This document shows, piece after piece, positions 1,096 through 19,904 of a DNA stretch of 39,636 bases. The position numbers were made by a program, and so were the translations under genes. The notes under the pieces were generated by a model, which saw only the letters and a list, made by a program, of their open reading frames with translations, was not told the DNA's origin and did no database searches. How positions within the stretch are numbered: position 1 is the stretch's first letter; each line of letters begins with the position of its first letter. The stretch is from Gammaproteobacteria bacterium. GTDB taxonomy: Bacteria > Pseudomonadota > Gammaproteobacteria > Porifericomitales > Porifericomitaceae. Location of the stretch: the NCBI GenBank assembly GCA_028817305.1, contig JAPPPX010000038.1, forward strand, positions 1 to 39,636, written 5' to 3'.

Positions 1096-4000
1096 TTACG
1101 GATCATGCGACGGCTCCGGGGACGATCCCGGCGGCGGCAGGGAGTGCCTGGAGCGCCGGACCGCGATCGTTTCGCCGGGGCGCTGGATGCGCGCGATGAA
1201 AGAGGCCCAGGCGCCGGGGGTTTTCGCCAGCGGACCGAGGGTTATCTTTGCGGGGCGAAACTCCGGCGGCAATTCCACGTAGAGCCGGGGACACTCGCCG
1301 CCCTCGGCGTACTCGCACTCGATGGCGGGTTCCGTCTTTTCGGGCAACAGATAGCGCATCCGCACCAGGCGCACTTCCCGTTCCCGCGGGTCGCGACGGC
1401 GCTTGAACAAAAAGCGCGCCTCGTCCAGCAGGCCGCGGGTGCAGGCGTTGATGAACGACGCATATTCCCGGTATTTTTCTTCCTGCTTAAGCTTCAGGAT
1501 ATTCTCCAGGGCGGCCTGCATTTCGCCCAACGGGCCGCGTATCTTTTCCAGCTCATCCTCGTAGAAGACCGCAAACAGCGCCGGCGGAGATGCCTGCGCC
1601 ACGGCGGCCACGCTGCCCGTCGCGTAGGGCAGCATGGCGCTGAAAACGGAATCGGCAAGCGCCTCCCGCGCAAACAGCCGCCGCGGGTAACTCAGGCTGC
1701 ACCCCGCTGCCTCGCGCCCCCGGTCCGTGCCGTAAAGGCGCCACCAGGGCAGCGCGTCTTCCGTGTCCGAGTCGCCCGCCGCGCCGGTGTCGTCCGCGCC
1801 GGACTCCCGGCCGGGGAGAAAACTGCCGACATAGACCGCGCTGTATTCCAGGCGCCCGTCATCCTCTCCGTAAAACTCCCGGCGCCAATCGTCGCCCTTG
1901 TCCATCGCCGCAAACATGGCCTGGCCTTCTTGCGGGTCGCTCATGCTCGCCGCGTTGTAGAGACGAAACCTGCCTGCCGCATCCACCAGGGGACGCAGGA
2001 CGGCCGCCGACGTGTAATGCACCGCGTACGCGGCGCGCTCGGTGCGCTTCATGGATTCCGCAAAGGCCTCCCGCTGCAAACCCCGAATCGCGCGCCTTAA
2101 CTCGTTAAACCGCTGGAACATCCCCGCCCGCCGCTGCGAAGGCATATCGTCGGAGGACAGGATAAAGAAGGCATCGAAGGGGGAAAAACGGGAAACGGCG
2201 CCGTCCTTGTCGTTCTTGAACGCCCTGGCGTAATCGGCTATGGCGCGGTCATGCTTGCCTTGCCCGGCATACGCGGCGCCGCGGTTGTAGTACGCCGCGG
2301 CATCCCGCGGCGCCAGCTCCAGCGTCTTGTCGTAGTCCCATATGGCGGTGTCATAATCGCCCCTGCCCACATAAGCGGCGCCGCGATTGTTGTAAGCCCC
2401 GGCATTCTCCGGGTCCAACTCCAGCACCTTGTCGTAATCCGCTATGGCGCGGTCGTAATCGCCCCGCCGGACATAAGCGGTGCCGCGGTTGTAATACGCC
2501 TTGGCATTTTCCGGGGCAAACTCCAGCGCCTGTTCGTAGTCCGCTACGGCGCGGTCGTAATCGCCCTGGCCGGCATACGCGAGCCCGCGATTGTAGTACG
2601 CCGCGACATATTCCGGCGCCAACTCCAGCGCCCTGGAATAGTCCGCTATGGCGCGCTCATAGTCGCCCTTATTGATATAAGCGGTGCCGCGGTTGTAATA
2701 CGCCGCATCGTTCCCCGGCGCCAACTCCAGCGCCTTGGAATAATCCGCTATGGCACGGCCGTAGTCGCCTTCCCGGGCATGGGCATTGCCGCGGTCGTAG
2801 TACGCCTCGGCATCCTCCGGCGCCAACTCCAGCGCCCGGTCGCAATCCGCTATGGCGCGGTCGTAGTCGCCCCTGCCGGCATAGGCGGCGCCGCGATTCT
2901 TGTACGCCTCGGCATCCTCCGGGTTCAACTCCAGCGCCCGGTCGCAGTCGGCTATGGCGCGGTCGTAGTCGCCCCTGCCGGCATAGGCGGCGCCGCGGCC
3001 CTTGTATGCCTCGACGTCCTCCGGGTTCAACTCCAGCGCCCGGTCGCAGTCCTTGATGGCGCGGTCGTAATCGCCCTTGGCGGCATACGCGGCGCTGCGC
3101 CTCTTGTACGCCTCGGCATCCTCCGGCGCCAGCTTCAGCGCCTTGTCGCAGTCCTTGATGGCCCGCGCGTAATCGCCCCTGCGGATGTAAACGAAGGCGC
3201 GATTCTTGTACGCCGCCACATCCTCCGGCGCCAGCTTCAGCGCCTTGTTGCAATCCGATACGGCCCAGGTGTAATCGCCCTTGCCGGCATGCGCGAGCCC
3301 GCGGCTCTTATATGCCGCCACATTCTCCGGCGCCAACTCCAGCGCCTTGTCGCAATCCTCTATGGCGTAATCGTACTCGCCCCGCGCGACGTAAGCGGCG
3401 CCGCGATCGCAGTACGCCCCGGCATCCTCCGGCATCCGCTCCAGAACCTTGTTGTAGTCCGATATGGCACGGGCATGATCGCCCATGGCGGCATGCGCGG
3501 CGGCGCGATTGCCATACGCCTCGGCATCCTCCGGGTCCAACTCCAGCGCCTTGCCGCAGTCCGTTACGGCGCGCTCATAGTCGCCCTTGCCGGCATACGC
3601 GGCGCCGCGATTCCTATACGCCTCGGCATCTTTCGGGGCCAAGCCCAGCGCCCGCCCGTAATCCTCTATGGCGCGGTTATGCTGGCCCTTCGCGGCATAG
3701 GCGGCCGCGCGATTTTTGTAGGCCCCGGCATCCCTGGGGGACCGCTCCAACACCCGGTCGTAGTCCGCCAGGGCGCGCGCATAATCGCCTTTGCGGAAAT
3801 ACGCCTGCCCGCGGCCCTGGTACGCCCCGGCATCCCCCGGCGCCAGCACCAACACCCGGTCGTAGTCCGCCAGGGCGCGCGCGTACTCGCCCTGGCCGAC
3901 ATATACGGCGCCGCGGCTCTTGTACGCCTCGGTATCCTGCGGCGCCAGCGCCAGCGCCCGGTCGTAGTCCGCCAGGGCGCGTTCGCGCTCGCCCTGGCCT

Positions 4001-6258
4001 GCATATACGGCGCCGCGGCTTTTGTACGCCTCGGCATCCTCCGGGTCCAACTCCAGCGCCTTGTCGCAATCCTGCAGGGCGCGTTCGCGCTCGCCCTTGC
4101 CGGCATACGCGGCGCCGCGGCCGTAGTAAGCCTCGGCATTCTCCGGCGCCATTTCCAGCGCCTGGTCGTAATCCCATATGGCGCGCTCATAGTCGCCCTT
4201 GCCGGCATAGGCGGCGCCGCGCTTTCTGTACACCCCGGCATCCTGCGGCGCCAGCGCTATCGCCTTGTCGAAATCCGTCAGGGCAAAATCGTATGCGCCC
4301 TGGCCTGCATACGCGACGCCGCGATTCTTGTACGTCTCGGCATCCTTCGGCGCCAGCCTCACCACCTTGTCGTAGTCCGATATGGCGCGCTCGTATTCGC
4401 CTTTCTCTACATACGCGGCCGCGCGATTTCTGTACGCATCGCCATACCTGGGGGACAACTTCAGCGCCCTGCCGTAATCCGATATGGCATGGTTGTAATC
4501 GCCCTTGGCGGCATACGCGGCGCCGCGGCTTTTGTAGGCTTCGGCATACCTGGGGGACAACTTCAGCGCCTTGTTGTAGTCCGATATGGCAAGGTCGAAC
4601 TCGCCTTGCTCGGCATAGGCGGCGGCGCGGTTTTTATAGACTTCGGAGTGATTCGGATTCAGGGCGATGTATTCCGTCAGGGTGGCAACGACCTGGTCCC
4701 ACTCCTTGCGGCCTATGGCGTCCTGGATCGTTTGCAACACGTCTTCCTGGGTTTGCGTGGGCGCGACGATCCGTTCCGAGGCAAGCGTGCGATGGTAATA
4801 AGAGGTGACATCCTCCGGCTCCAGTTCCTGCGGCTGGCCGGCGTCCGTGCCGCCCGCCTGCGGCGACCCTTCCGGGGCTTCGGCGGGCGAGCTCGCATGT
4901 TCCTCGGCAGCACCCAGATTGAAGTGAACGGCGGTATCCTCCGGCGACCACTCCGGCACATGTTCGCCCTCGCCCTCCTGCCCGGCCTCCGTGCCGGCCT
5001 CCGGCGATAGTTCCTCCGTGCGCGTCGCCGCGGCCGTCCGCTCTGCGGCGGAATCCGGACTGTCCTGCGCCACGGTGTCCTCCAGCAAAAAATCCGGCTC
5101 GCCGCGGTCTTCCCGCCCAAGCCCCGCGCCAAGCTCCGCGCCCAGCTCCAGCGGCGGCTCCGCCTGCGTAGCGGCCAGCGTCTGCCCGCCCTGGGTAACG
5201 AGCCCCAGATCGTAGTGCGCCTCGGCGCTCTCCGGCGACAACTCCACCGCCTTCTCGCAGTCCGCCACGGCGCGGGCGTGTTCGCCTTTCGCGGAGTAGG
5301 CGTAGCCGCGCTTGCGGTACGCCTCGGCATCGCCCGGGTTCAGGGCGATGTACTCCGTCAAAAGAACGGTGACCTCGTCCCACTCTTTATGCTTAAAGGC
5401 TTCCTGGGACTTGTGCCATATCTCCCGCGGGCTTTGCGACGGCGCGCCGTCCTGCCCCGCGGCGGTCGCCTCGCCCTCATCGGGCAGCGAAGTATCCTCC
5501 GGCTCCAACTCCAGCGCCTTGTCGTAATCCGCCATGGAGAGATCGTGCTCGCCTTTTTTGGAATAGGCCCTGCCGCGCTTGCGGTACGCCTCGGCATCAT
5601 TCGGATTCATGGAGATAAACTCGCTCAACAGCGAGATGGCCTGGTCCCACTTTCTGCGCTGGACGGCTTGCAGGGACCTTTGCCACAGACCTTCGCCGGG
5701 CAGGTCCAACGGGCCGGTCTGCCCCCCGGCGGCGCCCTGGTCGTAGCGCACCGGGGCGTCATCCTCCGGCTCCAACTCCAGCGCCCGGTCATAATCCGCT
5801 ATGGAAAGCTGATGCTCGCCCTGCTTGGCGTAAGCGCCGCCGCGCTTGCGGTACGCCTCGGCATGATTCGGATTCATGGCGATGAATTCCGTCAGCAGGG
5901 CGACGGCCGTATCCCACTCCTTGCGGCGGACGGCCTGCAGGGATTTTTGCCACAGCCCGCTGGAAGTGCGGGTGGACATGGCGCTCTGTTCCCCGGCGGG
6001 CGCCTGGCCGTAGCGCCCCTCGTAGCGCACTGGCGCATCCTCCTCCGGCTCCAGTTCCAGCGCCTTGTCGTAGTCGGCGATGGACTGCACATGCTCGCCC
6101 TGCTTGGCGTAAGCGCTGCCGCGCATACGGTATGCCTCGGCATGGTTCGGCTCCAGGGAGACAAACTCGGTCAGCAGGGAGATGGCCTTCTCCCACTGTT
6201 TGCGGCCCACGGCATCCTGGGCCTTTTGCCACAGTTTCTCGGACGATTGCTTTGGCAT
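1096..6258 (-). CDS. Giant tetratricopeptide-repeat protein with a possible DUF2971-like C-terminus
   Basis: 1720 aa, no signal peptide. Residues 1 to about 537 contain four spaced modules, each with an LLTEF/Y-I-x-x-NPxxAEAYRKRG pair of helices followed by ADYDKALELEPED, separated by acidic Ala/Gly/Glu-rich linkers. Residues about 538-1353 are 24 back-to-back 34-residue TPRs without a break, each close to AEAYxNRGAAYAxKGDYxRA then IxDYDKALELxPED. TPR arrays form superhelical protein-binding scaffolds. The last ~320 residues have the layout of DUF2971 proteins: an HYTS motif, RLYNAASMSDPQEG, then PWWRLYG and a Gly/Ala segment; that match is from memory and needs a profile search. The ATG at 6258 has GCGGAG about 10 bases upstream and a perfect -10 at 6289-6294. 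The repeat units are so alike in DNA that copy number could vary. The gene probably shares a transcript with the exported protein downstream. Partner and role are unknown. Confidence 0.9.
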   Translation of the reverse strand: MPKQSSEKLWQKAQDAVGRKQWEKAISLLTEFVSLEPNHAEAYRMRGSAYAKQGEHVQSIADYDKALELEPEEDAPVRYEGRYGQAPAGEQSAMSTRTSSGLWQKSLQAVRRKEWDTAVALLTEFIAMNPNHAEAYRKRGGAYAKQGEHQLSIADYDRALELEPEDDAPVRYDQGAAGGQTGPLDLPGEGLWQRSLQAVQRRKWDQAISLLSEFISMNPNDAEAYRKRGRAYSKKGEHDLSMADYDKALELEPEDTSLPDEGEATAAGQDGAPSQSPREIWHKSQEAFKHKEWDEVTVLLTEYIALNPGDAEAYRKRGYAYSAKGEHARAVADCEKAVELSPESAEAHYDLGLVTQGGQTLAATQAEPPLELGAELGAGLGREDRGEPDFLLEDTVAQDSPDSAAERTAAATRTEELSPEAGTEAGQEGEGEHVPEWSPEDTAVHFNLGAAEEHASSPAEAPEGSPQAGGTDAGQPQELEPEDVTSYYHRTLASERIVAPTQTQEDVLQTIQDAIGRKEWDQVVATLTEYIALNPNHSEVYKNRAAAYAEQGEFDLAISDYNKALKLSPRYAEAYKSRGAAYAAKGDYNHAISDYGRALKLSPRYGDAYRNRAAAYVEKGEYERAISDYDKVVRLAPKDAETYKNRGVAYAGQGAYDFALTDFDKAIALAPQDAGVYRKRGAAYAGKGDYERAIWDYDQALEMAPENAEAYYGRGAAYAGKGERERALQDCDKALELDPEDAEAYKSRGAVYAGQGERERALADYDRALALAPQDTEAYKSRGAVYVGQGEYARALADYDRVLVLAPGDAGAYQGRGQAYFRKGDYARALADYDRVLERSPRDAGAYKNRAAAYAAKGQHNRAIEDYGRALGLAPKDAEAYRNRGAAYAGKGDYERAVTDCGKALELDPEDAEAYGNRAAAHAAMGDHARAISDYNKVLERMPEDAGAYCDRGAAYVARGEYDYAIEDCDKALELAPENVAAYKSRGLAHAGKGDYTWAVSDCNKALKLAPEDVAAYKNRAFVYIRRGDYARAIKDCDKALKLAPEDAEAYKRRSAAYAAKGDYDRAIKDCDRALELNPEDVEAYKGRGAAYAGRGDYDRAIADCDRALELNPEDAEAYKNRGAAYAGRGDYDRAIADCDRALELAPEDAEAYYDRGNAHAREGDYGRAIADYSKALELAPGNDAAYYNRGTAYINKGDYERAIADYSRALELAPEYVAAYYNRGLAYAGQGDYDRAVADYEQALEFAPENAKAYYNRGTAYVRRGDYDRAIADYDKVLELDPENAGAYNNRGAAYVGRGDYDTAIWDYDKTLELAPRDAAAYYNRGAAYAGQGKHDRAIADYARAFKNDKDGAVSRFSPFDAFFILSSDDMPSQRRAGMFQRFNELRRAIRGLQREAFAESMKRTERAAYAVHYTSAAVLRPLVDAAGRFRLYNAASMSDPQEGQAMFAAMDKGDDWRREFYGEDDGRLEYSAVYVGSFLPGRESGADDTGAAGDSDTEDALPWWRLYGTDRGREAAGCSLSYPRRLFAREALADSVFSAMLPYATGSVAAVAQASPPALFAVFYEDELEKIRGPLGEMQAALENILKLKQEEKYREYASFINACTRGLLDEARFLFKRRRDPREREVRLVRMRYLLPEKTEPAIECEYAEGGECPRLYVELPPEFRPAKITLGPLAKTPGAWASFIARIQRPGETIAVRRSRHSLPPPGSSPEPSHDP

Positions 6259-6611: not shown

Positions 6612-8096
6612 CTATCTAATTTTGACTAGACGCTTTTTGGACTGGGCAACACAGATACCCTCACTATTGAGAATAAACGCTTTTACCCAATGTGTCCCCC
6701 AGTACGCGGTAGATTCCCACCTAGTTTGTTCTCGAGTGTTATCTGATTCGTAAAAGTCCCCTCGAAGACCATCTGCATCTTTAGCCTCTTTACCAGTATT
6801 TGTGACCTGCCACTGTATTGTGTACGGTTTGGGCACGTTCGTTTTCACCTCGAATTTAATCCATACTTTCTTTGGCACAGATTTCTTTCTCAGTGCCCAC
6901 TTGGTTTCACTGCCTCTTTTACGATAAACGGTACCGACAATGTGTACTTCATAACCGGAAATCTCTTCAATTGGAAATTTATTACTAGGGTCTAGCACAT
7001 GGTCTTCGTCGCCTAGGGGAGGCACTGTCGGTTCTAAATCCACTGTAGTAGGCAGTGAAGTTCGGTGGGGAATTTTTAAATCATTTGCTACTTTACTCAT
7101 TACTTTTTCACCGATAGATGTATTCAAAAGGTTGATGGCTTCTTGTGTGCTATCAATGACATAAACTCTCGTAAAGTCTTCCCTGAGCTTATCTAACCAC
7201 TTCTGGAATGCCTTATGACGTGCTGGATATTCGTTCCATCTGTCAGCAAAATTCTCGCCGTCGTCAACAGGATTTTGGACCCACCATTGACCGTTGCGTT
7301 TCTCAATATATTTTGACATCCCTTGTGTGATGGATTTCAACGCATTATAAAGTTCTCCTTCGTTGTTGTAGGCATGTCCGGCAAGGGTCGTGATAATGAT
7401 TGAGACTGGTTTATTGTCTGGATCGTTTTTAAAATAAATGTCTCGATGCCGCTTTAAGATTTGCACGCAACGTTGAAGAGGAGTTTTGACCAGCCAATCT
7501 GGAACATTATCAACTTCAGCCCTTATTTTTATAGCAAGAGCATTCTTTACAGCATGAAAGGAGATCTCCATTTGCTTTTTGAACCATTCAGCATATTTAC
7601 GTGGATTGCTCTTCTGCCACATTCTAAGCTCGGTGTCGGTAAGAAGAATCCCAGTTGGCCGCCGTTCTTCATTTGGGATTGACGGCAAAACATCCATGTG
7701 GAACTTGGGCATTGAACGCTCTTTTGGATACTTGAGAATCCAACAACGTCTCGAAGTTTCTAACATTCGAGCGAGATCGCCCCGAGCCCTGAGGCGTTGG
7801 CCAACCTTTTCCTTCAGATCTTTTGGCGCTATATGCTCTTTATCAATTTCAAGGCAACATACAAGATCAATATCATATCCTTCATTGATGTCTATTGGTT
7901 GCACCACTGTGCCGAGTAGAAAGGAGCCTTGAACATATACATCTGGAGAATAGTCGGAGAGCTCAGATTCGTCATTTGCCAGATGTTCGCCTACATCTGT
8001 ATATTTTAGGACAGCATCTTCATAAACATGTTCTGGAATATCCAGCGCTTCCGCAGTTTTTTCGAGAATTAGTGCGAGCAGATTGCTATTTGTCAT
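6612..8096 (-). CDS. CBASS cyclic-oligonucleotide synthase (CD-NTase) with AGS-C-like sensor domain
   Basis: 494 aa. The nucleotidyltransferase core has QGSFLLGT (Gly57-Ser58), the paired metal-binding acids D75-I-D77 in GYDIDLV, and a third acid, D135, in FHMDVLPS. This is the complete catalytic set of the cGAS/DncV-like (SMODS) family, which makes cyclic di- or trinucleotides on phage infection. The last ~120 residues (from ISGYEVHIVGTVYRK, with WQVTNTGKEA and a W-x-x-T-x-YWGTHW segment) look like the adenylyl/guanylyl-and-SMODS C-terminal sensor domain. I chose the ATG at 8096 over an in-frame ATG at 8240: AGAAGGAA lies just upstream, and the longer start would overlap the preceding gene. 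It follows the CapV-like phospholipase by 16 bases, so the two form an operon. No Cap2/Cap3 ubiquitin-like accessories are present, so this is a minimal type. The nucleotide product cannot be read from sequence. Confidence 0.9.
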   Translation of the reverse strand: MTNSNLLALILEKTAEALDIPEHVYEDAVLKYTDVGEHLANDESELSDYSPDVYVQGSFLLGTVVQPIDINEGYDIDLVCCLEIDKEHIAPKDLKEKVGQRLRARGDLARMLETSRRCWILKYPKERSMPKFHMDVLPSIPNEERRPTGILLTDTELRMWQKSNPRKYAEWFKKQMEISFHAVKNALAIKIRAEVDNVPDWLVKTPLQRCVQILKRHRDIYFKNDPDNKPVSIIITTLAGHAYNNEGELYNALKSITQGMSKYIEKRNGQWWVQNPVDDGENFADRWNEYPARHKAFQKWLDKLREDFTRVYVIDSTQEAINLLNTSIGEKVMSKVANDLKIPHRTSLPTTVDLEPTVPPLGDEDHVLDPSNKFPIEEISGYEVHIVGTVYRKRGSETKWALRKKSVPKKVWIKFEVKTNVPKPYTIQWQVTNTGKEAKDADGLRGDFYESDNTREQTRWESTAYWGTHWVKAFILNSEGICVAQSKKRLVKIR

Positions 8097-8112
8097 AAAG
8101 TTTTCCTTCTGA

Positions 8113-9087
8113 CTATAAGCGGTAAAAGGGGTTGAATTCAGGAGCTTGATGGCTTGTGAATTCTTTGAGAAATACCGGCGCGAAATTTCGACTATAGGAG
8201 GAGGCTTTTGCGAAGAGATCGTCTGCCTTGTGAATTCCATCTAGAGAAAACTCTTCTGGCGCCACTTTGGGATCCAGTCTTTCTACGTGATTCTGTCCCA
8301 ATAAGATTTTACAATGGTTAGTAGCCCCTATGCTCTGCCCGCGCATTATCACATCAACTGCAGTGTTTCCAAGCGACCATGCTATCTTGCCGCCATTATT
8401 GAGATATTTACGACGGCGATTTACTGCATCTAAAGTTCCTATGCTTAACAAGTAAATAGATGAAAGAGGGATGTTCATTGTTCGATATGCTTCCACAACT
8501 GCTACAAGAGAAGGGTTGTTAGCCCAAACCCCACCATCTATGAGACGCAGGTTGTCAATTTCCCGAGCACACGGGAAAAATGTAGGGGCTGCACTCGTAG
8601 CCTTGGCAACCTCCCAGGCAGCAGTTTTATAATCACGCCTTAATTTTTGATGGTGAGCTGTCCGAAAAAGATAGATATCGTCATTGCTAAGGTTATAAGC
8701 CGGAATCAGGAGTCGTTTAGCACTGTCGCCAAGGCGTTTATCTTGGAAACATTTTTTCAAGGCCGCATCAAAAGGGGCGGCAGAAAATTTTCTGGCCACC
8801 CAGTGTTGTAATGATTTAGTGCCACACTGACATGGAAAAATCTTTGGCCCCTCCTGCATATAAAGTTCAACTATCTCGCGCGGACGAATCCCTAGACCCA
8901 AGCCTATAGCAATGACACCTCCCGTAGATGTTCCTGCAATGAGATCGAAATGATCTGTAATCTTGGTTTCCAAATCTTCCTCAATCGCAGCAAGGACGGC
9001 TGCCGAAAAAATCCCTTTGATACCGCCTCCATCCAGAGAAAGAACCTGGAATCGCCTGGCATCACTATTTGTCGTGGCTGCATTCAT
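8113..9087 (-). CDS. Patatin-like phospholipase, CBASS effector (CapV-like)
   Basis: 324 aa, soluble. Patatin hallmarks are all present: the oxyanion motif DGGGIKG (19-25), the nucleophile elbow GTSTG with Ser54, and the DGG motif with catalytic Asp184. Members next to a CD-NTase are CapV effectors: they are switched on by the cyclic nucleotide and hydrolyse inner-membrane phospholipids, killing the infected cell. The gene is first in the operon, directly upstream of the CD-NTase. A purine-rich GAAAGGCAG precedes the ATG. The 118-bp gap to the GIY-YIG gene on the same strand should carry the promoter, or the operon may be read through from that gene. All catalytic residues are intact, so the effector should be active. 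Confidence 0.9.
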   Translation of the reverse strand: MNAATTNSDARRFQVLSLDGGGIKGIFSAAVLAAIEEDLETKITDHFDLIAGTSTGGVIAIGLGLGIRPREIVELYMQEGPKIFPCQCGTKSLQHWVARKFSAAPFDAALKKCFQDKRLGDSAKRLLIPAYNLSNDDIYLFRTAHHQKLRRDYKTAAWEVAKATSAAPTFFPCAREIDNLRLIDGGVWANNPSLVAVVEAYRTMNIPLSSIYLLSIGTLDAVNRRRKYLNNGGKIAWSLGNTAVDVIMRGQSIGATNHCKILLGQNHVERLDPKVAPEEFSLDGIHKADDLFAKASSYSRNFAPVFLKEFTSHQAPEFNPFYRL

Positions 9088-9205: not shown

Positions 9206-9541
9206 TCACGCACTCCCCCTGTTGCAAGGTGGCTTGTGATAGTAAATCATCGCCACTTCTGCGTGCTTTCGATCATCCTCCGGACTGATTGGTGCGACGT
9301 TGAAGCACAACACCTCGCCGTTTCGCAGCTTGCTTTCCCAGTCCTTTCTGCGTTCGTGATTGGACACTCTGTCGTGGATGTCCTCTGACTCACCGATATA
9401 GAGCAGCTTCCGGATAGAAACTGTGCGGGCGTGGACATCATGTGTGCACGCATAGATACAATAGATGCCAGAATAGTCAGGCAGATCAGCGGATTTTGTA
9501 TAATACCCTTGAAAATTAAGAGGATAAGTCATTGAGTTCAT
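9206..9541 (-). CDS. Small GIY-YIG nuclease-domain protein
   Basis: 111 aa, essentially only the GIY-YIG domain. GIY is at 25-27, YIG at 48-50, Arg58 follows in ESEDIHDRVSNHE, and the metal-binding Glu is E95 in HAEVAMIYY, ending with KPPCN. The family cuts DNA and includes homing, repair and restriction enzymes; free-standing copies like this are mostly unassigned. The start has a strong AAGGAGG site and a promoter reading away from the XRE gene, whose -35 lies inside a palindrome. It is upstream of the CBASS operon on the same strand. It could be an accessory of the neighbouring XRE-protease-lipase cassette or an independent nuclease; the substrate is unknown. Confidence 0.85.
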   Translation of the reverse strand: MNSMTYPLNFQGYYTKSADLPDYSGIYCIYACTHDVHARTVSIRKLLYIGESEDIHDRVSNHERRKDWESKLRNGEVLCFNVAPISPEDDRKHAEVAMIYYHKPPCNRGSA

Positions 9542-9578: not shown

Positions 9579-9607
9579 AATATAAGACGTCTCCGTCTAT
9601 ACGGTAA
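9579..9607 (-). promoter_or_regulatory. Putative promoter of the GIY-YIG gene
   Basis: On the minus strand TTACCG (9607-9602) is followed after 17 bases by TATATT (9584-9579). The strong ribosome site and ATG (9541) come about 40 bases later. The -35 lies inside the palindrome at 9599-9613, so a protein bound there should block this promoter. Confidence 0.45.
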
Positions 9608-9613
9608 CCGTAT
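9599..9613. promoter_or_regulatory. Palindromic operator candidate between XRE and GIY-YIG genes
   Basis: ATACGGT-A-ACCGTAT is a perfect 7+1+7 palindrome in the 98-bp divergent intergenic space. It covers the -35 of the GIY-YIG promoter and lies about 26 bases before the GTG of the XRE gene, just upstream of TATACT at 9622-9627. Position and symmetry fit an autoregulating XRE repressor. That the neighbouring XRE protein binds it is inference. Confidence 0.5.
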
Positions 9614-9639
9614 TATTTAATTATACTGGAGCGTCTACA

Positions 9640-9999
9640 GTGAAGTCAAGCCCCCCCAGCGATGTTTTTCCTAATCGCCTTCGCATCATGCGTAGAAAGC
9701 GCAACCTGAGCCAAGGTGCTCTGGCAAAACGCACTGGCCTTCAGGGGTCTGCCATCTCACACTTTGAGACAGGAGCCCGCAAGCCATCCTTTGATAATCT
9801 ACGCCGCCTTGCAGATGCCCTTGATGCTACAACTGACTATTTACTTGGCCGTGTTACTGATACTCAGGCAATAGCCAGTGCTGACAAACTTTATCGGCAT
9901 ATGGATCAACTCACGAGTGAGGACCAAGATATGGTCGAAGATTTCCTTGAAATCCTCGTGAGAAAATCCAAGAAAAGAAAATCGGACAATGAAACGTAA
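9640..9999 (+). CDS. XRE-family transcriptional regulator
   Basis: 119 aa. Residues 12-66 are a complete Cro/CI-type helix-turn-helix (RLRIMRRKRNLSQGALAKRTGL, recognition helix around SAISHFETGARKPS, then LADALDATTDYLLG). The tail is charged and short, with no sensor domain. The only plausible start is GTG at 9640, with TGGAG about eight bases before it. The gene overlaps the ImmA-like protease gene by 11 bases, so the two are translationally coupled. This is the usual layout for a repressor controlled by a dedicated protease (ImmR/ImmA of ICEBs1) and for some HTH/DUF955 toxin-antitoxin pairs. Divergent promoters and the palindrome at 9599-9613 suggest autoregulation. Confidence 0.9.
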   Translation: MKSSPPSDVFPNRLRIMRRKRNLSQGALAKRTGLQGSAISHFETGARKPSFDNLRRLADALDATTDYLLGRVTDTQAIASADKLYRHMDQLTSEDQDMVEDFLEILVRKSKKRKSDNET

Positions 10000-10849
10000 C
10001 AATCCCTATCGGCCTGTCGAACGTGAAGCCGAGAAAGTTATTAAAGATCAAGGTATCTCCAAGTTGCCTGTTAACCCCATAGACTTGGCGCGCAGTATTG
10101 GCATTGAGGTTAAATCAAGGGGTTACACCCATGGTGTTTCAGGTATGCTCCTGCGCCAAGGGGAGCAATATGGCATTTTCTACTCTACTCATATAAATAA
10201 TGTCGGGTTTCACCATTTCAGTGTTGCACATGAATTAGGACACTACTTCTTGCCCGGTCATATAGCCGCCGTTTTAGATGGTGGCAATATTCATCGTTCA
10301 CGTGCAGGCTTTATTTCCGACAATCGTTATGAGAGAGAAGCTGATCATTTCGCCGCAAATATATTGATGCCGGCTCTACTTTTCACTAGCGCTATGAAGA
10401 AGGTTGGAGATGGATTTATTGCGGTCAAGGCCTTGGCAGACCTCTGCCAAACTTCCTTAACTGCGACCGCTATACGCTATGCACAATGTACTGGTGATTC
10501 TATAGCTGTCGTTCTAAGCAGTGGTAACCAGGTTGACTGCTGTTTTATGTCTGACTCTCTAAAAGAAATGGAAGGCATAGAGTGGATTCGCAAAGGATCT
10601 TTTTTGCCAAAGGATACTGCAACTTTTACCTTTAATCAAGATAAAGATGGTGCCGACCATGCCGAACATGTCGAGGATACTTGCAATCTGCAGGACTGGT
10701 TTGGTGGGTCTTGCAGCGCCGAAATCACTGAGGAAATTGTTGGCCTTGGCAATTACGGAAAAACCTTGACAGTTTTAACCGGCTTCCCAGATCCAGAAGA
10801 GATAAAGGAAGAAAGCAGTTTAATGGACTCTTGGCAAGTGAAGTTCTGA
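9989..10849 (+). CDS. ImmA/IrrE-family metallopeptidase (DUF955)
   Basis: 286 aa, cytoplasmic. The zinc site is clear: HELGH at 81-85 after the FHHFSVA strand, and the third ligand E117 in YEREADHFAANILMP. Proteins of this family cleave a partner XRE repressor or, in IrrE, a damage-response repressor. The last ~140 residues are longer than in minimal ImmA proteins and contain an acidic stretch (NQDKDGADHAEHVED) of unknown use. The gene overlaps the XRE gene by 11 bases and lies 22 bases before the lipase gene, giving a three-gene operon. The pair resembles known HTH/DUF955 toxin-antitoxin modules (the RosmerTA defence type is what I recall), but the third gene is not part of that description. 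Confidence 0.88.
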   Translation: MKRNNPYRPVEREAEKVIKDQGISKLPVNPIDLARSIGIEVKSRGYTHGVSGMLLRQGEQYGIFYSTHINNVGFHHFSVAHELGHYFLPGHIAAVLDGGNIHRSRAGFISDNRYEREADHFAANILMPALLFTSAMKKVGDGFIAVKALADLCQTSLTATAIRYAQCTGDSIAVVLSSGNQVDCCFMSDSLKEMEGIEWIRKGSFLPKDTATFTFNQDKDGADHAEHVEDTCNLQDWFGGSCSAEITEEIVGLGNYGKTLTVLTGFPDPEEIKEESSLMDSWQVKF

Positions 10850-10871
10850 CAATATATGGAGGATGATTTAC

Positions 10872-11954
10872 ATGGAAAACGAATATTTTAAAGCACCGAA
10901 AGCAATGATTAAATTGCCGACCACTCGCGCTGCATATAGTGATCGTACGGCGTGGATGATGTCTGAGATGAGTGCTTTGGCATACTTTCCTTTTGAAGGC
11001 GAGAAATCTCTGAGTCAAGAAATTAGAATGGTTACTGGCCCTCTCAAATTATTTTATAAAATGAGAAAAAAAACAGATGTGGCCGATAAAATCTCCGAGC
11101 TTGAACAAAGGCTAAAGGAATATATTGATAGCAGGACCGAGCCCGACAATGGGCAATCGAATAGCGGAAAAGAGGCTTTAGAGGCGGCCCTTATAAGTGC
11201 TGGCTTTGCTCTTGTCCGTACTTTCAACAAGGGAGATACTCAGGCATTCTTGGCAAAACGGGAGAAGGATAATGTGGCTGTTCTTTCTTTCCGTGGAACC
11301 GAAGAAAACAGTTGGAAAGATATTAAAACCGACTTGAACTTCCGATTTTATAAAGGTGAAAAAGGGGCAAAAGTGCATTCCGGCTTTTCTGGCGCACTTC
11401 ATCACGTAAAAGATGAAATTCGAGAAGCGCTTATGCTTAGAGATCTGGAAAGTTATTCGCTCTATATTACTGGGCATTCTCTCGGCGGCGCTTTGGCTAT
11501 TATTGCATCTAAGGAGTTTGAGAAGGACAGCCTCGCGGCTTGTTATACCTTTGGAAGCCCCAGAGTAGGAGATGCGGAATTTGGTGAACAAATTAAAGCG
11601 CCTGTTTACAGAGTTGTCAATGCTGCCGACGCAGTGCCACGCTTACCACTAAGCTGGTGTGTAGATATAATTGCCTGGATTATTTCCATATTCCATGGAA
11701 AATTTGCTGATTACATAAAAGAAAACTTTTCTGGATACATACATTATGGCGATATGCGTTATTTAACGGCGTGTGATAATGACATTCAGAAATTGAAAGT
11801 ACTTCAGAATCTCGGAGTAGGTTCCAGACTCAAGCGATTTTTAAGAATAGTTTTACGCCATGGTCCTTCGGTCGCTGGGAAAGATCATCGTATGAATGAG
11901 TACCGGAAAAAATTGAAATACTATGCTGAAAAGCGCAACAAGCTTGATGCATAA
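10872..11954 (+). CDS. Class 3 (fungal-type) lipase, possible abortive-infection effector
   Basis: 360 aa. The alpha/beta hydrolase core is complete: the lipase-3 strand VLSFRGTEENSW with the oxyanion region, VHSGF, the nucleophile elbow GHSLGG with Ser203, TFGSPRVGD, the catalytic Asp253 in NAADAVPRLP, and a C-terminal DHRMNEYRKKL whose His339 is the likely third triad member. Residues ~262-275 (CVDIIAWIISIFHG) are strongly hydrophobic and may contact a membrane. The first ~90 residues are a separate basic, coiled-coil-like segment. There is no signal peptide, so the enzyme should act inside the cell. GGAGG at 10858-10862 abuts an ATG at 10863, so I prefer the ATG at 10872, which has proper spacing. 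It is the third gene after XRE and ImmA. A lipase kept silent by that pair and released on infection is inference. Confidence 0.85.
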   Translation: MENEYFKAPKAMIKLPTTRAAYSDRTAWMMSEMSALAYFPFEGEKSLSQEIRMVTGPLKLFYKMRKKTDVADKISELEQRLKEYIDSRTEPDNGQSNSGKEALEAALISAGFALVRTFNKGDTQAFLAKREKDNVAVLSFRGTEENSWKDIKTDLNFRFYKGEKGAKVHSGFSGALHHVKDEIREALMLRDLESYSLYITGHSLGGALAIIASKEFEKDSLAACYTFGSPRVGDAEFGEQIKAPVYRVVNAADAVPRLPLSWCVDIIAWIISIFHGKFADYIKENFSGYIHYGDMRYLTACDNDIQKLKVLQNLGVGSRLKRFLRIVLRHGPSVAGKDHRMNEYRKKLKYYAEKRNKLDA

Positions 11955-14287: not shown

Positions 14288-16180
14288 TTATTTTTCCCCC
14301 CAAACAGCAGCGATTTTGGCTTTGATTTTCTGCTTATGTGAGCGGATGAGGGCCTTATTGGCGTCTATCGTCTTTTCCTCTTCCTGAACTTCGGCGACAG
14401 TTTGCCGCTGAATATTCAGCGGTGGAAGTGGAATATGGGTTTTTGAGTATTGTGAAATCCAATACCTCCTATGGCGTTCATGCCTTTGGAAATTAATGTT
14501 TTTCATCACGTAAAAAACAAATTTCACATCTGCAATTTCTTTTTTTGCGTGCAAAATTTTCATGGCGGAAGATTTAACCTTAAAAGGGAAATCTACAAAT
14601 TTAATGGCAGTAGTGAAATCATCGAAAATAATCACCGGCAATTTCTCACCAGGGAAAACACCGTTCTTTTCATTTGTGTAACCCAAAATAAAAGTTTTCC
14701 CTGCTGTCAAAACAGGCGTTTCATACTCATCGCTGTAGTCAACCGAACTGACAATGTAGTTTGTCGGTTGTTCATAATCCAGAATATCTTCTAGCGCTAC
14801 CATTGGCCAATTTGATCGCTGAACAATCGTATTTTCTTTATATCTTTCTCCGCTCAAATCCCAACCAACACTTTTGTTGATTTTCCCCCTACTCACTACC
14901 ACTGTACCAGTGGCAATTTCTATATCCTGAATCGCACTGTTTCCAGCGGCGTTAAAAAATGTCTTAACTTGCTGTGCTGCTTCAGGCAAATCATTTTTGT
15001 CTATGCGATGACGCTGCTTACCCAAATCATAGCCGTCGTTTTTTACTTTGACAAACAAAATATCTCCTATCTTTTTCGCCAGGGGTTTGTCCATAAACAG
15101 AATGGATGTTTTAATCGCGGAATAAGGATTGAACACGCCTTTAGGCAGAGAGATAACGGCGACAACATAATTTTCCACCAGCATTTCCCGCAACTGTTTG
15201 TATGCTCTGTCGGACTGGGAAATAATTGACTCTGGCACAATCACCGCCGCCCTGCCTTTCGAGGTCAGGTGTTCGGCAATGTAGTCCACAAACAGCACTT
15301 CACTGCGTTTTGACTGGATGGAGAAACGCCCGTGCGGGCGGATGCCGCCCTTAGGTTCCATAAAAGGCGGGTTGGCGAGGATCACATCGGCATTTTCGTT
15401 CCAGCGCTCCTCGGATGTGAGGGTGTCGTATTCATGGATGTGCGGTTCGGCAAACCCATGCAGGTACATGTTGACCAGCGACAGGCGCACCTCATTTGGA
15501 GAAATGTCGTAGCCAGAAATATTGCGCGCCAGTTTGCGGCGCTCGTCGGGAGTGAGGGCGGTGCCAGGCTTGCCGTCTTTGGCATTGGCATTCCGGATGT
15601 ACTTCCAAGCGGAAATCAGAAACCCGGCGGTGCCGCAGGCTGGGTCGAGAATGACCTCGTGCTTTTGCGGCGCGACGATGTCCACTATAAAGTCTATGAT
15701 GTGGTGGGGAGTGCGAACCTGGCCGGCGTCACCCTGGCTGTCGAGTACCGACAGTAGATATTCATAGGCATCGCCCAGGTGCTCCGAGTGGTCGTATTGA
15801 AAATCGTCAATGATTTTCAGAAACCCGCGCAGTGTTTCGGGATCGCGGTACGGCAGATAGGTGTTCTTGAAAATATCCCGGAACAACTGCGGAATGCCGG
15901 GGTTTGCGCTCATCCTGGCGATGGCCTCGGCGTAAAGATTCAAAACGCCGTGGCCGCCCATGCCCGGGGACATGAGTTTTTCCCAGCGGTATCGCTCAAA
16001 ATCCCCGGCAAAAAAAGACCGCTTGCCGCCGACGCTCTCGGCCTCGTTGTCCATATCGGCCATGAATTTGTAAATCAGCGCGACGGTGATTTGCTCCACC
16101 TGCGATTTCGGGTCCGGCACTTTGCCGACCAGTGTGTCGCGGGCCGCGTCTATGCGCCGCTTTGTTCTGTTGTCCAGCAT
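14288..16180 (-). CDS. hsdM: Type I DNA methyltransferase HsdM fused to a half-size specificity domain
   Basis: 630 aa. Residues 1 to ~150 are the HsdM helical N-domain. The N6-adenine methylase core follows, with the SAM motif DPACGTAGF (179-187) and catalytic motif NPPF (270-273). From about residue 440 the sequence switches to a type I target-recognition domain: WPMVALEDILDYEQPTNY, VLTAGKTFILGY, IIFDDFTT, then ISQYSKTHIPLPPLNIQ leading into the conserved helix that spaces two TRDs in HsdS. Only one TRD is present and no hsdS gene is nearby. So this is an M-S fusion that should dimerise to read a palindromic site, or that has lost the second half. It starts three bases after the hsdR frame stops. 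With hsdR broken, this may act as an orphan methylase. Confidence 0.88.
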   Translation of the reverse strand: MLDNRTKRRIDAARDTLVGKVPDPKSQVEQITVALIYKFMADMDNEAESVGGKRSFFAGDFERYRWEKLMSPGMGGHGVLNLYAEAIARMSANPGIPQLFRDIFKNTYLPYRDPETLRGFLKIIDDFQYDHSEHLGDAYEYLLSVLDSQGDAGQVRTPHHIIDFIVDIVAPQKHEVILDPACGTAGFLISAWKYIRNANAKDGKPGTALTPDERRKLARNISGYDISPNEVRLSLVNMYLHGFAEPHIHEYDTLTSEERWNENADVILANPPFMEPKGGIRPHGRFSIQSKRSEVLFVDYIAEHLTSKGRAAVIVPESIISQSDRAYKQLREMLVENYVVAVISLPKGVFNPYSAIKTSILFMDKPLAKKIGDILFVKVKNDGYDLGKQRHRIDKNDLPEAAQQVKTFFNAAGNSAIQDIEIATGTVVVSRGKINKSVGWDLSGERYKENTIVQRSNWPMVALEDILDYEQPTNYIVSSVDYSDEYETPVLTAGKTFILGYTNEKNGVFPGEKLPVIIFDDFTTAIKFVDFPFKVKSSAMKILHAKKEIADVKFVFYVMKNINFQRHERHRRYWISQYSKTHIPLPPLNIQRQTVAEVQEEEKTIDANKALIRSHKQKIKAKIAAVWGEK

Positions 16181-16183: not shown

Positions 16184-18700
16184 TTAATCTATGAACGGGT
16201 TGAGTGAAACATAATCCTTGATGTATTCAGGGATGATTTCCCGCCATTCTTCCGGTACGCTCTTGTAATCCTCGAAGGGCAAGGTGGAATTCGCATAGAG
16301 TTTGGAGAAATCTTTATTCTCCACGATCTGCCGCAGCTCGTTGTCGGTGATATAAGCTTTGAAGTAATACTTCATCGGCACGATGATTTCTGGGTCTTCT
16401 GGCTTGCGGTCGGCGATGAATTTATTGAATTCATCCTCCAGCAATTCGTTTTTGGATTGGAAACGGGAAATCAAGCCAAACGCCTTTTCCAGCAATTCCC
16501 TCGGGCTCAGGCGGCGGTCGGCGCCTGCGGCGCGGCGCAATCTTTGCAGGTTGAAATAGTCTTCCGGGCGGTCGAAAACTTTTTCCTTCAAATGTTTAAT
16601 AGCGATGTCCCACTGCCCGCTTTCAACGCTGCGGCGGATGAACCCGTCGGCCTGAACCGTCTTCTCAAAACGATGGAACATCTCGCGGTCTATTTTCATT
16701 CCCCCCTCGCCGATGAGCGTTCCTTTCATTTGCACCATTGAATCAGGAGCATCGCTTTCGTATTCGTAATTGCGCGCTTTGCCGCCGGGTTCGCCATTGC
16801 CTTGACCAGGAGACGGCAACTCAATTATCTGATCGTAGTCATACTTCTCCTCGAAGTATTCGTAGTTGGCAAAGAAATCGAACAGTTTGAAGCGCTCTTT
16901 TTGCGCGCTGCCGAGGGCCTCTTTTTGGCTGCTATCGGTTACCTATTCCAGAAAATCATGGCGCCGGGTGCCACGCCCCTTCATCTGCACAAAATCCGTG
17001 GGCGAAAAAACCGGGCGCATCAGGCACAAGTTGAGAATATCGGTGCAGTCATAACCAGTAGTCATCATGCCCACGGTAACGCACACGCGGGTTTTGCTGG
17101 TTTTGTAATATTCCTGAAAATTCGCCGAGCCGTTCAGATTGTTGTTGGCAAAGTTGCGGCTGAATTGTTGCGCGTCTTGAACCAGGGAGGTCACCTGAAC
17201 GGCAAAATCCGAGTGGTATTTGCCGGGAAACATCGCATCTGCCAGTTCATTCAATATCTGAGCGATTTTGGCTGCGTGAGTCTGGCTGACCGTGAAAACA
17301 ATGGTCTTGCCAATCTCGCCGCTCACCGGGTCGCGCTCGGCGTACTCAAGAAAAGCGCGGCAAAAAACCCGGTTGGTCGGCTCGGACAGGAACTTCCGCT
17401 CAAAATCCTTGCTGACATAGGTGTATTCTTCCAGATCGCCGTCCTCACCGACAACATGGACCGTGTGGCCTTCATCCGACAGTAATTCCCGGCTAATCCT
17501 GCTACGGGCATCCACCACATGGGTTTTTACCAGGCAATTGTCCCGCACCCCGTCCACCAACGAATAACGAAATGTCGGTTCCTCGCTTTCGCAGCCAAAA
17601 GTGCGGTAGGTGTCCAGCAGCAGACGGCGCTCGGTTGCGCGGCTATCTTCGGTCTTTTTCTCCAGGTTTTTTAGGTAGTCTTTCGGCGTGGCGGTGAGGC
17701 CGAGTTTGTAACCGAAAAAATATTCAAACAGCGCCCGCGCGTTGCCGCTGATGGAACGGTGCGCCTCATCGGAGATGATGAAGTCGAAGTCGGATGGCCC
17801 AAACAGCCGTTGATATTTGTTATCAAACAACAGCGACTGCACGGTGCTGACCACGATTTCCGCCTTGCGCCAGTCGTCGCGCTTTTCCTTGTAAATCACG
17901 CACTGGTAGTCTTTGTGCAACAATTGCTTGAATTGCTTATGCGCCTGTTCTTCCAACTCTAGCCGGTCCACGAGAAACAGCACACGCTGAACATTGCCGG
18001 TTCTCAGGAATAATTTAATCAGCGCTGCCGCGGTCAAAGTTTTACCGGTGCCGGTGGCCATTTCAAAAAGAAAGCGGTTCTTTCCTTCCTTCACCGCCTG
18101 TTGCAGCGCATGCACCGCCCGCAACTGGTAATCGCGCAAAAATCGCAGCCCTTCTTTCTTTTCAAAAACCGAGCGCTGTCCCTCGTCCAGCCAGCCTGGG
18201 TTGCGGGCATAATCCGGCATCTGGCTTAAGGCAATGTAATCCGCCGCCACCGGCTCGGACGCCAACTTTGCCGAATCCGGCCTGTATTCCCGGCGTTGCC
18301 CAAGAGAACCACTGTCGGGGAATCGCGTGATGACTTCCGGGTTGCCCTGCTCCAAATCCCAGAAATAATGCAGATTGCCGTTGGAAAGAATTACAAACCG
18401 GCAATTTTGCGAGCGGGCGTATTTGCGCGCCTGCTCCTTGCCGGCCAGCGGGTTGATGCTTTCCGCTTTGGCCTCCAGCGCCGCCAGCGGGAAGCCCTTG
18501 TCGCCAATCAGCAGAAAATCAATGTAGCCGGATTTTGTTTTCTCAAAATCCTCCCCCATCGCCTTAAGATCATCGCCGGTAAGGGCGACATGATTTTCCA
18601 GCAGCACGTTGGCCTTTCCATCCGCGCAATCCAGCAGGCGCCAACCGGCCTCTTCCAGCAGTTTGTTGATTTTGATTCTGGCTTGGGCCTCATTTTTCAC
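16184..18700 (-). pseudogene. hsdR: Type I restriction subunit HsdR, interrupted by an in-frame amber codon
   Basis: A complete HsdR of about 838 codons except for one TAG at 16945-16943, in frame on both sides. Upstream part (585 aa): the nuclease motif YIDFLLIG...LAALEAKAE (D and ExK), Walker A GTGKT, ISDEAHRS box, LTATPK, and helicase motif VI QMKGRGTRR, which ends a few codons before the stop. Downstream part (~250 codons): the C-terminal helical domain that docks HsdR on HsdM. The break should leave a nuclease-helicase that cannot bind the methylase, so restriction is probably lost unless the codon is suppressed. The frame stays open after the stop, so the mutation looks recent, or is a sequencing error. 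The start is uncertain: I use GTG at 18700 after GGGTGA; TTG codons at 18718 and 18724 also fit. Further upstream the frame runs into a pyrE-like fragment. Confidence 0.85.
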
Positions 18701-18729
18701 CGTGTATTCACCCAGCAAATGCAAGTCGC

Positions 18730-18789
18730 GGTCGTGCCAGATAGCGGAATGCCCTTGTAGGCGGGGCCGAACAGAACGTTGGAATCCAT
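18730..18789 (-). pseudogene. Short orotate phosphoribosyltransferase (pyrE) remnant
   Basis: Read on the minus strand from the ATG at 18789, the peptide contains NVLFGPAYKGIPL (FGPAYKGIPL at 18771-18742), a near-exact match to the conserved PyrE segment of that form. A TAA lies four codons before the ATG, and the similarity ends after about 15 residues, running into the 5' region of hsdR in another frame. No other part of pyrE is visible. This looks like a breakpoint scar from insertion or deletion near pyrE. The match is short but very distinctive. Confidence 0.6.
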
Positions 18790-18891
18790 ACGGCCATTTT
18801 ACTGCCTGGACATGCCGCCCAGACAGCCCTTCGCCAGTATAACCTATCCCCCGGCAACTGAAACGCTCCGGACATTCGCCCGCAACCGGCA

Positions 18892-19317
18892 TTATGCGGG
18901 CAGTGTCTTCACCTTGACTCTGCTGGCCGCCTTGACCAGCGTCTTGTCCAGCGTCGCCAGCGGGATTCCGTGCCGCATGGCGAGTTCCAGATAGGCGGCG
19001 TCGTAGATGGCCAGGGATTCGGCGCGGGCGAGACTCAACACCTCTTTCAGGGTGCGGCTGTGGTCCGTGTCGGCGGTGATGGGCAGCCGGTTGACGAGTT
19101 CCACTATGGCCGCGATTTGGGCGGCGGTTATGCGCCGGTGTTTTTCGGCACGCGCCAGCACGTTGCCAAGTTCCAGATGCCACAGGGCGGGGACCAGCGC
19201 GCCGTCGTCGCGCAGTCGTTCCAGCAGCCGGTCGGTTTTCGCGCTGGCTTCATCCGCAACAAGCCAGGATACGGCGATGGAACAATCGAGTACAAAGGCG
19301 CTCACCGGTGCGCTCAC
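18892..19317 (-). CDS. vapC: PIN-domain ribonuclease toxin, VapC type
   Basis: 141 aa. The four PIN-domain acids are in place: D11 in FVLDCSIAVSW, E49 in HLELGNVL, D106 in IYDAAYLELA and D124 in LATLDKTL. VapC toxins cleave tRNA or rRNA and are neutralised by the upstream antitoxin. The ATG at 19317 overlaps the antitoxin stop by four bases, the standard coupling. It lies between the pyrE-like scar/hsdR and a repeat block, and its base composition is closer to the chromosome than to the defence island. The family call is firm; the RNA target is unknown. Confidence 0.9.
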   Translation of the reverse strand: MSAPVSAFVLDCSIAVSWLVADEASAKTDRLLERLRDDGALVPALWHLELGNVLARAEKHRRITAAQIAAIVELVNRLPITADTDHSRTLKEVLSLARAESLAIYDAAYLELAMRHGIPLATLDKTLVKAASRVKVKTLPA

Positions 19318-19553: not shown

Positions 19554-19631
19554 GCTGCGCCTCCTTGACAGACTAGTTCAATAGACCAGTATAGCGGATG
19601 GGCCGCCGCACCGCCGCCCAACCCACCCCGT

Positions 19632-19871: not shown

Positions 19872-19904
19872 GGCGGAGTAAGCTTTATTTGCTGGATGCC
19901 CATA

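What the first reader, a model, noticed from the sequence alone, without database searches (positions are those of the whole stretch)
9640..11954. XRE regulator - ImmA-like protease - class 3 lipase operon: candidate undescribed defence system
Seen: three plus-strand genes, 11-base overlap then a 22-base gap, inside a block of known defence genes. The protease has an intact HELGH...E117 zinc site, and the lipase an intact Ser203/Asp253/His339-type triad and no export signal. Known: XRE/DUF955 pairs form protease-controlled switches and toxin-antitoxin defence modules. Inference: the lipase is a third, effector component that attacks the inner membrane once the protease removes the repressor. 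I know of no named system with this trio.
Basis: partly seen in the sequence, partly recalled or inferred. Interest (0 to 1): 0.8.

Follow-up and report, generated by a model that had tools for sequence, protein, structure and literature searches.

The report
CBASS switch genes plus stray lipase
The regulator and protease match the known CapH-CapP switch of the CBASS anti-phage system encoded next to them, and the lipase behind them is an extra gene whose relatives are nearly always found without that switch, so this looks like a known device carrying an unusual passenger that may or may not be an added weapon.

Summary
The three genes are real and intact, but the trio is not a conserved unit. 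The XRE/ImmA pair matches PADLOC capH (1.2e-20) and capP (8.1e-59) and the solved CapP 7T5T. It lies head-to-head with a CBASS operon (CapV phospholipase, CD-NTase) that the finding's coordinates leave out. None of 27 other capP loci holds this lipase; in 17 of them CBASS, Bub or cyclase-like genes face capH. The lipase triad Ser203/Asp253/His339 is kept in 85 of 85, but of 84 other lipase loci only one has a capH-capP-type pair beside it in the stretch held. Still, the lipase lies 22 bp behind capP with no terminator seen between, so it is probably induced with the switch. Some relatives sit in or beside other defence operons (between type III mod and res, behind Wadjet jetD, beside PDC-M48B), and one distant relative (Poribacteria) faces capH-capP across a vestige of a patatin gene. 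Verdict: a CapHP-controlled CBASS with an accessory lipase. 'New three-gene defence system' is not supported; 'facultative extra effector' stays open.

The parts
9640..9999 (+). capH: Cro/C1-type (XRE) repressor, 119 aa
   Evidence: PADLOC capH 1.2e-20; Pfam HTH_31/HTH_3; 40-58% identical to the capH genes found in 25 of 27 other capP loci. It also matches NCBIfam RstR-family repressor at 75.0 bits, below that model's cut-off of 80
9989..10849 (+). capP: ImmA/IrrE-type M78 zinc protease, HELGH 81-85 + E115
   Evidence: PADLOC capP 8.1e-59; PDB 7t5t CapP 2.3e-6; H81, E82, H85, E115 invariant in 12 of 12
10872..11954 (+). class 3 lipase, 360 aa (ORF listing gives an earlier ATG at 10863); triad S203/D253/H339
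   Evidence: Pfam Lipase_3 3.8e-28; triad kept in 85 of 85; AlphaFold2 model, mean pLDDT 87.4, matches fungal feruloyl esterases and class-3 lipases; no PADLOC match at E 0.01
9585..9598 (.). candidate CapH operator, AGACGTCTCCGTCT (AGACG/CGTCT half-sites)
   Evidence: inverted repeat; binding is inference, no shuffle control run
9599..9613 (.). candidate CapH operator, ATACGGTAACCGTAT (7-1-7 palindrome)
   Evidence: ATACG/CGTAT half-sites also stand upstream of capH in L038; the same bases were listed as a terminator-like hairpin; binding is inference
9620..9649 (-). promoter-like TTGACT-18-TATAAT reading toward the CBASS genes, adjoining the candidate operators
   Evidence: 11 of 12 consensus matches, but 4 sites found in the region against 5.7 expected from shuffles
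9206..9541 (-). small GIY-YIG-like protein, 111 aa, first ORF opposite capH
   Evidence: weak: Pfam GIY-YIG 0.0045, below cut-off
8113..9087 (-). CBASS CapV patatin-like phospholipase effector
   Evidence: NCBIfam CBASS_lipase 7.8e-81, 271.8 bits against cut-off 200; PADLOC Effector 2.2e-100; DGGGIKG, GTSTG and DGGV motifs in the sequence (motif meaning recalled)
6612..8240 (-). CBASS CD-NTase (SMODS + AGS_C); likely true start near 8096
   Evidence: PADLOC Cyclase 5.6e-160; Pfam SMODS, AGS_C; GS...DID motif in the sequence (motif meaning recalled); NCBIfam cGAS model 78.7 bits, below its cut-off of 150

Best explanation
The pair is the CapH-CapP controller of the CBASS operon that is transcribed away from it. 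CapH binds palindromes in the 98-bp shared promoter region and represses both directions. When phage attack or DNA damage yields single-stranded DNA, CapP is activated and cuts CapH, so CBASS (CD-NTase and CapV) and the capHP operon are derepressed. The lipase is a separate gene that landed behind capP and is read from the capH promoter, so it is induced by the same switch without being a defining part of it. If it acts in defence (I put that at about 0.4), it does so as a cytoplasmic class 3 lipase or phospholipase, a second membrane-damaging effector. Shown here: gene identities, layout, intact active sites, lack of conservation of the trio. From the literature on CapHP: ssDNA activation and cleavage. 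Inferred: operator binding here, read-through into the lipase, any anti-phage effect of the lipase. The confidence given covers the switch, its CBASS target and the lipase as a non-defining, co-induced extra gene, not the effector role.
For: CapH/CapP profile and structure matches. Head-to-head layout with capV and CD-NTase, as in other CapHP loci: of 27 examined, CBASS genes face capH in 12 (L040, L208, L209, L210, L211, L213, L215, L217, L218, L233, L235, L238, by annotation, blastp or likeness to annotated cyclases), a cyclase-like, perhaps Pycsar, gene in 1 (L234, my reading) and Bub-type multiubiquitin/ThiF genes in 4 (L206, L207, L212, L214, by annotation). Palindromes between the divergent starts. 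Lipase 22 bp behind capP with a ribosome-binding site, and no + strand promoter-like or terminator-like site in the gap. Low-GC island (0.42-0.57 from 6 to 19 kb against 0.60-0.74 outside). A same-species genome, G218, shows no capP and no lipase. The role of CapH+CapP in DNA-damage control of CBASS and Bub operons is stated in PMC13373217 (passages) and PMC10904395 (passages).
Against: No expression data; co-transcription rests on spacing alone. In 9 of the 27 other capP loci (L038, L039, L216, L229, L230, L231, L232, L236, L237) no immune gene was recognised opposite capH in the stretch held, several being cut short, and in L239 no capH was found and a ThiF-like gene lies further off. capH also scores 75.0 bits against a phage RstR-type repressor model, just below its cut-off. 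Palindromes with arms of 7 or more were found in 8 of 15 intergenic stretches, none at all in L215, and no shuffle control was run. G218's contigs break near both island ends, so absence there could be incomplete assembly. A 111-aa ORF lies between capH and capV, so the CBASS operon's first gene is uncertain.
Confidence: 0.72

Rival explanations
1. One reading: a self-standing, undescribed XRE-protease-lipase defence system with the lipase as its dedicated effector.
For: Tight spacing, intact lipase triad, plausible membrane-damaging effector. A Poribacteria locus (L118) independently puts a lipase of this family beside a CapHP-type pair.
Against: 0 of 27 other capP loci hold the lipase; in 83 of 84 other lipase loci no capH-capP-type pair was found beside it. 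The pair has a CBASS operon in the position where most other CapHP pairs have their immune operon. In the same 369 gammaproteobacterial genomes, a lipase match at E 1e-20 occurs in 11 (7 of them near full length) and capP in 4; only the window's own genome has both.
Confidence: 0.08
2. The lipase is a nomadic accessory effector module that joins operons of many defence systems and borrows their control.
For: Traced one by one in 9 of 84 loci: between type III mod and res with 0 bp to res (L060), 28 bp behind Wadjet jetD (L033), 8 bp from PDC-M48B (L051, L069), beside an Orf5/mREase_IV-like gene (L071), beside PDC-M04A (L123), behind a Ppl-matching ATPase (L020), near a KAP NTPase (L036, weak PADLOC match), facing capHP with a patatin vestige (L118). 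One search shows further matches (IetA, PD-Lambda-1, HNH, PDC-M48A) whose loci I did not trace. The window lipase groups with L058, L069 and L071 (98/94); the defence label needs 4 changes on the tree against a shuffled mean of 7.4, 6 of 500 shuffles as low.
Against: Nine of 84 is a minority. PADLOC counts do not separate adjacent genes from genes 4.5 kb or more away (89 against 216 families matched at 1e-10, the latter swelled by generic helicases). I assigned the defence labels after seeing the neighbourhoods, and the window's branch is long.
Confidence: 0.3
3. Passenger: a housekeeping or competition lipase carried by the island, irrelevant to phage defence.
For: The family is widespread in bacteria and many of the neighbours I could read are ordinary metabolic genes (the output was cut and one search lists 25 of 107 Pfam families). 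A lipoprotein gene lies within three genes in 17 of 84 loci, which recalls secreted lipase-immunity pairs (resemblance from memory, not tested).
Against: It sits in the capHP transcription unit; the window's branch of the tree lacks the lipoprotein partner (0 of 28 rows against 14 of 30).
Confidence: 0.45
4. ICE or prophage control circuit (ImmR-ImmA type).
For: XRE/ImmA pairs do this in ICEs (known; PMC10233336 seen in a search listing with the start of its abstract only). capH scores near the cut-off of a phage RstR repressor model.
Against: The PADLOC models fit capH and capP best; no integrase or structural phage family among the 20 ORFs scanned against Pfam and no tRNA in the window; the divergent genes are CBASS. 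Not every ORF of the window was scanned.
Confidence: 0.05

Closest known systems
CapH-CapP controller of CBASS/Bub operons (Lau et al. 2022, recalled and cited in PMC13373217; that 2022 paper is not held)
   Same: Same two protein families, same gene order, capHP head-to-head with a CBASS operon, palindromes in the shared intergenic region.
   Different: A class 3 lipase gene follows capP; a small GIY-YIG-like ORF lies between capH and capV.
CBASS with CapV patatin-type phospholipase effector
   Same: CD-NTase and CapV adjacent, motifs intact by eye.
   Different: The lipase in question is a class 3 lipase (alpha/beta hydrolase), not a patatin, and Pfam shows no further domain on it.
CapK-CapS and CapW controllers (PMC13373217, passages)
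   Same: DNA-damage-controlled repressors placed beside diverse immune operons. That paper reports yegP after capKS in 57 of 443 cases; yegP also adjoins the lipase in L118 (Pfam) and, by my reading of its sequence, in L079.
   Different: Different protein families; here a protease, not a kinase or a WYL protein.
Class 3 (fungal-type) lipases; EDS1-type lipase-like domains
   Same: Core fold and triad; Foldseek best hits feruloyl esterase and Rhizomucor lipase (2.0e-12), EDS1 from 1.5e-7.
   Different: An N-terminal region of about 100 residues, largely helical in the model, with the motif AYSDRT in 75 of 85; no secretion signal seen by eye.

Membership tests
CapH-CapP | CapH: short Cro/C1 HTH repressor directly upstream of capP | tested here: met
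CapH-CapP | CapP: M78 protease with HExxH and downstream Glu | tested here: met
   H81/E82/H85/E115 invariant 12 of 12; 7T5T match
CapH-CapP | Adjacent, divergently transcribed immune operon | tested here: met
   capV and CD-NTase on the minus strand
CapH-CapP | Palindromic operator in the shared intergenic region | tested here: inconclusive
   palindromes present, no shuffle control; binding untested
CapH-CapP | ssDNA-activated cleavage of CapH | not testable with these tools
   biochemistry needed
CBASS | CD-NTase with intact catalytic motif | tested here: met
   PADLOC Cyclase 5.6e-160; GS...DID by eye; below the cut-off of NCBIfam's cGAS model, which is for another cyclase clade as I read it
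CBASS | Cap effector beside the cyclase | tested here: met
   NCBIfam CBASS_lipase 271.8 bits against cut-off 200
   0 of 27 other capP loci; 1 of 84 other lipase loci, in another arrangement
   plating assay needed
Class 3 lipase | GxSxG nucleophile, Asp, His triad in Lipase_3 fold | tested here: met
ImmR-ImmA type ICE/prophage switch | Element with its own integration and transfer or phage genes | tested here: inconclusive
   none among 20 ORFs scanned, no tRNA; island ends not resolved

The most novel reading that the evidence does not exclude
A class 3 lipase family, most of whose members carry an AYSDRT motif, is a wandering membrane-attack module that defence operons recruit as an extra or replacement effector under their own control: beside CapHP at least twice independently (behind capP here; in Poribacteria L118 in the place where a patatin effector gene once began), inside a type III R-M operon, and next to Wadjet and PDC-M48. 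Here it would give one CapHP switch two lipid-attacking effectors of unrelated folds: CapV, which also needs the nucleotide signal, and the lipase, which would need only transcription.
Probability: 0.27. Interest if true: 0.6.

Novelty: new variant of a known kind. Interest (0 to 1): 0.33.

Why it matters
It shows that an apparent new defence system can be a known controller whose real target lies on the other strand, just outside the marked coordinates. If the lipase is a working effector, it would be a membrane-damaging arm tied to a DNA-damage switch without a nucleotide signal, and a lead to a lipase family recruited by several unrelated defence operons.

Tried and rejected
Single-sequence scans of genome contigs and viral contigs with the lipase and of viral contigs with CapP found no relatives; alignment queries worked. 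The 80 viral-contig lipase relatives are mostly partial matches; they were in the blastp set and none had a capH- or capP-like hit; their other neighbours were not annotated. PADLOC contrast of lipase neighbours (144 genes next door) with 144 genes 4.5 kb or more away in the same loci: no usable difference (one search repeats the first set at 1e-40, with no counterpart for the second). Looking for the empty island site in the same-species genome failed because its contigs break there. Literature: three searches for class 3 lipases or CBASS lipases in phage defence showed no description of this trio (20 of 468 papers listed, none found); a fourth was rejected for its wording. Two searches for CapH/CapP (8 papers, 20 of 2,965 listed) led to passages of three papers; no paper was read whole. 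Two further searches, on lipase-immunity pairs and YegP, were seen as listings only. The ICE/prophage circuit was set aside because the profiles and the divergent CBASS fit better. Rows dropped before counts: four genome-contig loci (L053, L072, L104, L116) that repeat whole-genome loci; of 481 or more lipase relatives only the best 80 were kept; whole-genome matches covering only the central domain (such as L003, L026-L028) were not counted among the 84. Of the 84, 73 have at least 1.3 kb and 58 at least 4 kb held on both sides (L118 is among the 73, not the 58). The alignment and tree hold the window and 57 of the 84, most of them chosen for having the AYSDRT motif, so the motif's invariance there is by choice; the unselected count is 75 of 85, while the triad holds in 85 of 85. 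Part of the relatives were themselves found through the GHSLG motif. Of the 27 other capP loci, L230 repeats L229, several are cut short, and in L230 and L239 no capH was found. Six weaker M78 matches (L242-L247, 22-32% identity) were left out. The defence labels on the tree are mine.

Full report
What is there. The window carries three plus-strand genes as described: 9640-9999, 9989-10849 and a lipase gene ending at 11954. Their Pfam families are Cro/C1 HTH, Peptidase_M78 and Lipase_3. The 11-base overlap is exact.

The pair is CapH-CapP. PADLOC gives capH at 1.2e-20 (next model 2e-13) and capP at 8.1e-59 (next 9e-8). A sequence search of solved structures gives one hit for the protease, 7T5T, 'CapP toxin', 2.3e-6. 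Against this: capH also scores 75.0 bits with NCBIfam's RstR-family repressor model, under its cut-off of 80.

The pair has a target on the other strand. Directly upstream, on the minus strand, lie a small GIY-YIG-like ORF, a CapV phospholipase above NCBIfam's cut-off and a CD-NTase with SMODS and AGS_C domains. I examined 27 other capP loci: L206-L218 from plasmid records and two whole genomes, L038-L040 from three gammaproteobacterial genomes, and L229-L239 from IMG/VR contigs, of which L230 repeats L229 and several are cut short. CBASS genes face capH in 12, a cyclase-like (perhaps Pycsar) gene in one more, Bub-type multiubiquitin/ThiF genes in four. In L239 no capH was found and a ThiF-like gene lies further off. 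In the remaining nine nothing was recognised opposite capH in the stretch held. In none of the 27 was this lipase found anywhere in the stretch held. Of 15 intergenic stretches read, eight, the window's included, hold palindromes with arms of seven or more; no shuffle control was run. The window's has AGACGTCTCCGTCT and ATACGGTAACCGTAT beside a minus-strand promoter-like site. Six weaker hits (L242-L247, 22-32% identity) are distant M78 proteins and are not counted.

The lipase is a gene of its own. A search of 84,980 species' genomes gave at least 481 relatives, of which the best 80 were kept. With six whole-genome and two plasmid relatives, and four duplicates removed, 84 loci were examined. 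CapH- and CapP-like genes lie beside it in one, L118; a fused HTH-ImmA gene lies 1.5 kb away in another, L056. Of the 84, 73 have at least 1.3 kb held on both sides. In 369 gammaproteobacterial genomes a lipase match at E 1e-20 occurs in 11, seven of them near full length, and CapP in 4; only the window's genome has both. The triad Ser203/Asp253/His339 is kept in 85 of 85 and the motif AYSDRT in 75 of 85. The predicted structure (mean pLDDT 87.4, pTM 0.86) is a class 3 lipase core with a largely helical N-terminal region; best matches are Aspergillus feruloyl esterase and Rhizomucor lipase at 2.0e-12.

Where relatives live. Many of the neighbours I could read are ordinary or unrecognised (whose output was cut, which lists 25 of 107 families). 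In nine loci I traced a defence-type neighbour: type III mod and res on either side in Nitrospina L060, Wadjet JetD in front in L033, PDC-M48B beside it in L051 and L069, Orf5/mREase_IV- and PDC-S05-like genes in L071, PDC-M04A in L123, a Ppl-matching ATPase (TrlF-like, from memory) in L020, a KAP NTPase with a weak PifA match in L036, and capHP in L118. One search shows further such matches that I did not trace. A comparison with genes 4.5 kb or more away in the same loci showed no excess. In 17 loci a lipoprotein gene lies within three genes of the lipase, in 13 of them with a gene for a ~95-aa protein. The tree of the window and 57 relatives splits into a branch of 28 with the window's gene and no such lipoprotein neighbour, and a branch of 30 with 14 of them. 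The window's gene groups with L058, L069 and L071 at 98/94, on long branches.

L118 deserves a paragraph. In this Poribacteria MAG, capH and capP (PADLOC 4.1e-21 and 6.7e-42; 30% and 26% identical to the window's) face the lipase, which is followed by a YegP/DUF1508 gene. Between capH and the lipase lies a short stretch reading FRVLSIDGG, like the patatin starts FRVLSLDGGG in L211 and YRILSIDGGG in L218, not in the frame of the nearest ATG and cut short. I read it as the remnant of an effector gene in whose place the lipase now stands. Its lipase is in the other branch of the tree (split 95/82), so the two associations with CapHP look independent.

Mechanism. [quoted passage not shown] Applied here, that induces CBASS and, by read-through, the lipase. 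The last step and its consequence are inference; I put an effector role for the lipase at about 0.4.

Setting. The block is a low-GC island (0.42-0.57 from 6 to 19 kb) in surroundings of 0.60-0.74. A genome of the same species shows no capP and no lipase, but its contigs end near both island borders. To the right of the lipase lie DUF5131 with TcmP and type I-like restriction-modification genes.

Verdict. Known controller and known CBASS; the new element is a facultative lipase in the controller's operon.

Noticed in passing
L118:1490-2920 and L118:2996-3418: Poribacteria MAG: capH-capP facing a lipase plus YegP/DUF1508 gene, with a vestige of a patatin gene start between them; looks like an effector replaced under a CapHP promoter.
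   Followed up: partly
L060:6122-11537: Nitrospina: lipase gene lies between type III mod and res, abutting res with 0 bp.
   Followed up: partly
L106:7965-9957, L018:6845-9026 and 15 other loci: Lipase of the same family with a ~220-240 aa lipoprotein gene within three genes (17 of 84 loci), in 13 of them with a gene for a ~95-aa protein. No Pfam match above cut-off for the two pairs scanned and no PADLOC match for the one pair scanned.
   Followed up: partly
window 9206-9541: 111-aa GIY-YIG-like ORF as first ORF opposite capH, between it and capV; possible extra nuclease of the CBASS operon.
   Followed up: no
window 19600-20100 and 1-202: Dispersed repeats: 127 matches to 19600-20100 in the window's own genome; 1-202 is also repeated in the same-species genome. 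Several contigs begin in them.
   Followed up: partly
window 1096-6258: 1720-aa protein made largely of TPR repeats, with a 102-bp tandem repeat array at 2221-4632.
   Followed up: no
window 14288-16180: N6-methylase fused to a type I specificity-like domain, near an HsdR/ResIII-type helicase at 16943-19183 and a DUF5131-TcmP pair.
   Followed up: no
L079:5636-5986: A gene whose product begins like YegP/DUF1508 (my reading) lies 45 bp before the lipase, and a lipoprotein gene 15 bp behind it.
   Followed up: no
L102:7421-7684, L039:5179-5439: Similar 86-87 aa products stand opposite the lipase in L102 and opposite capH in L039; they resemble the product annotated DUF3892 in L206 by eye.
   Followed up: no
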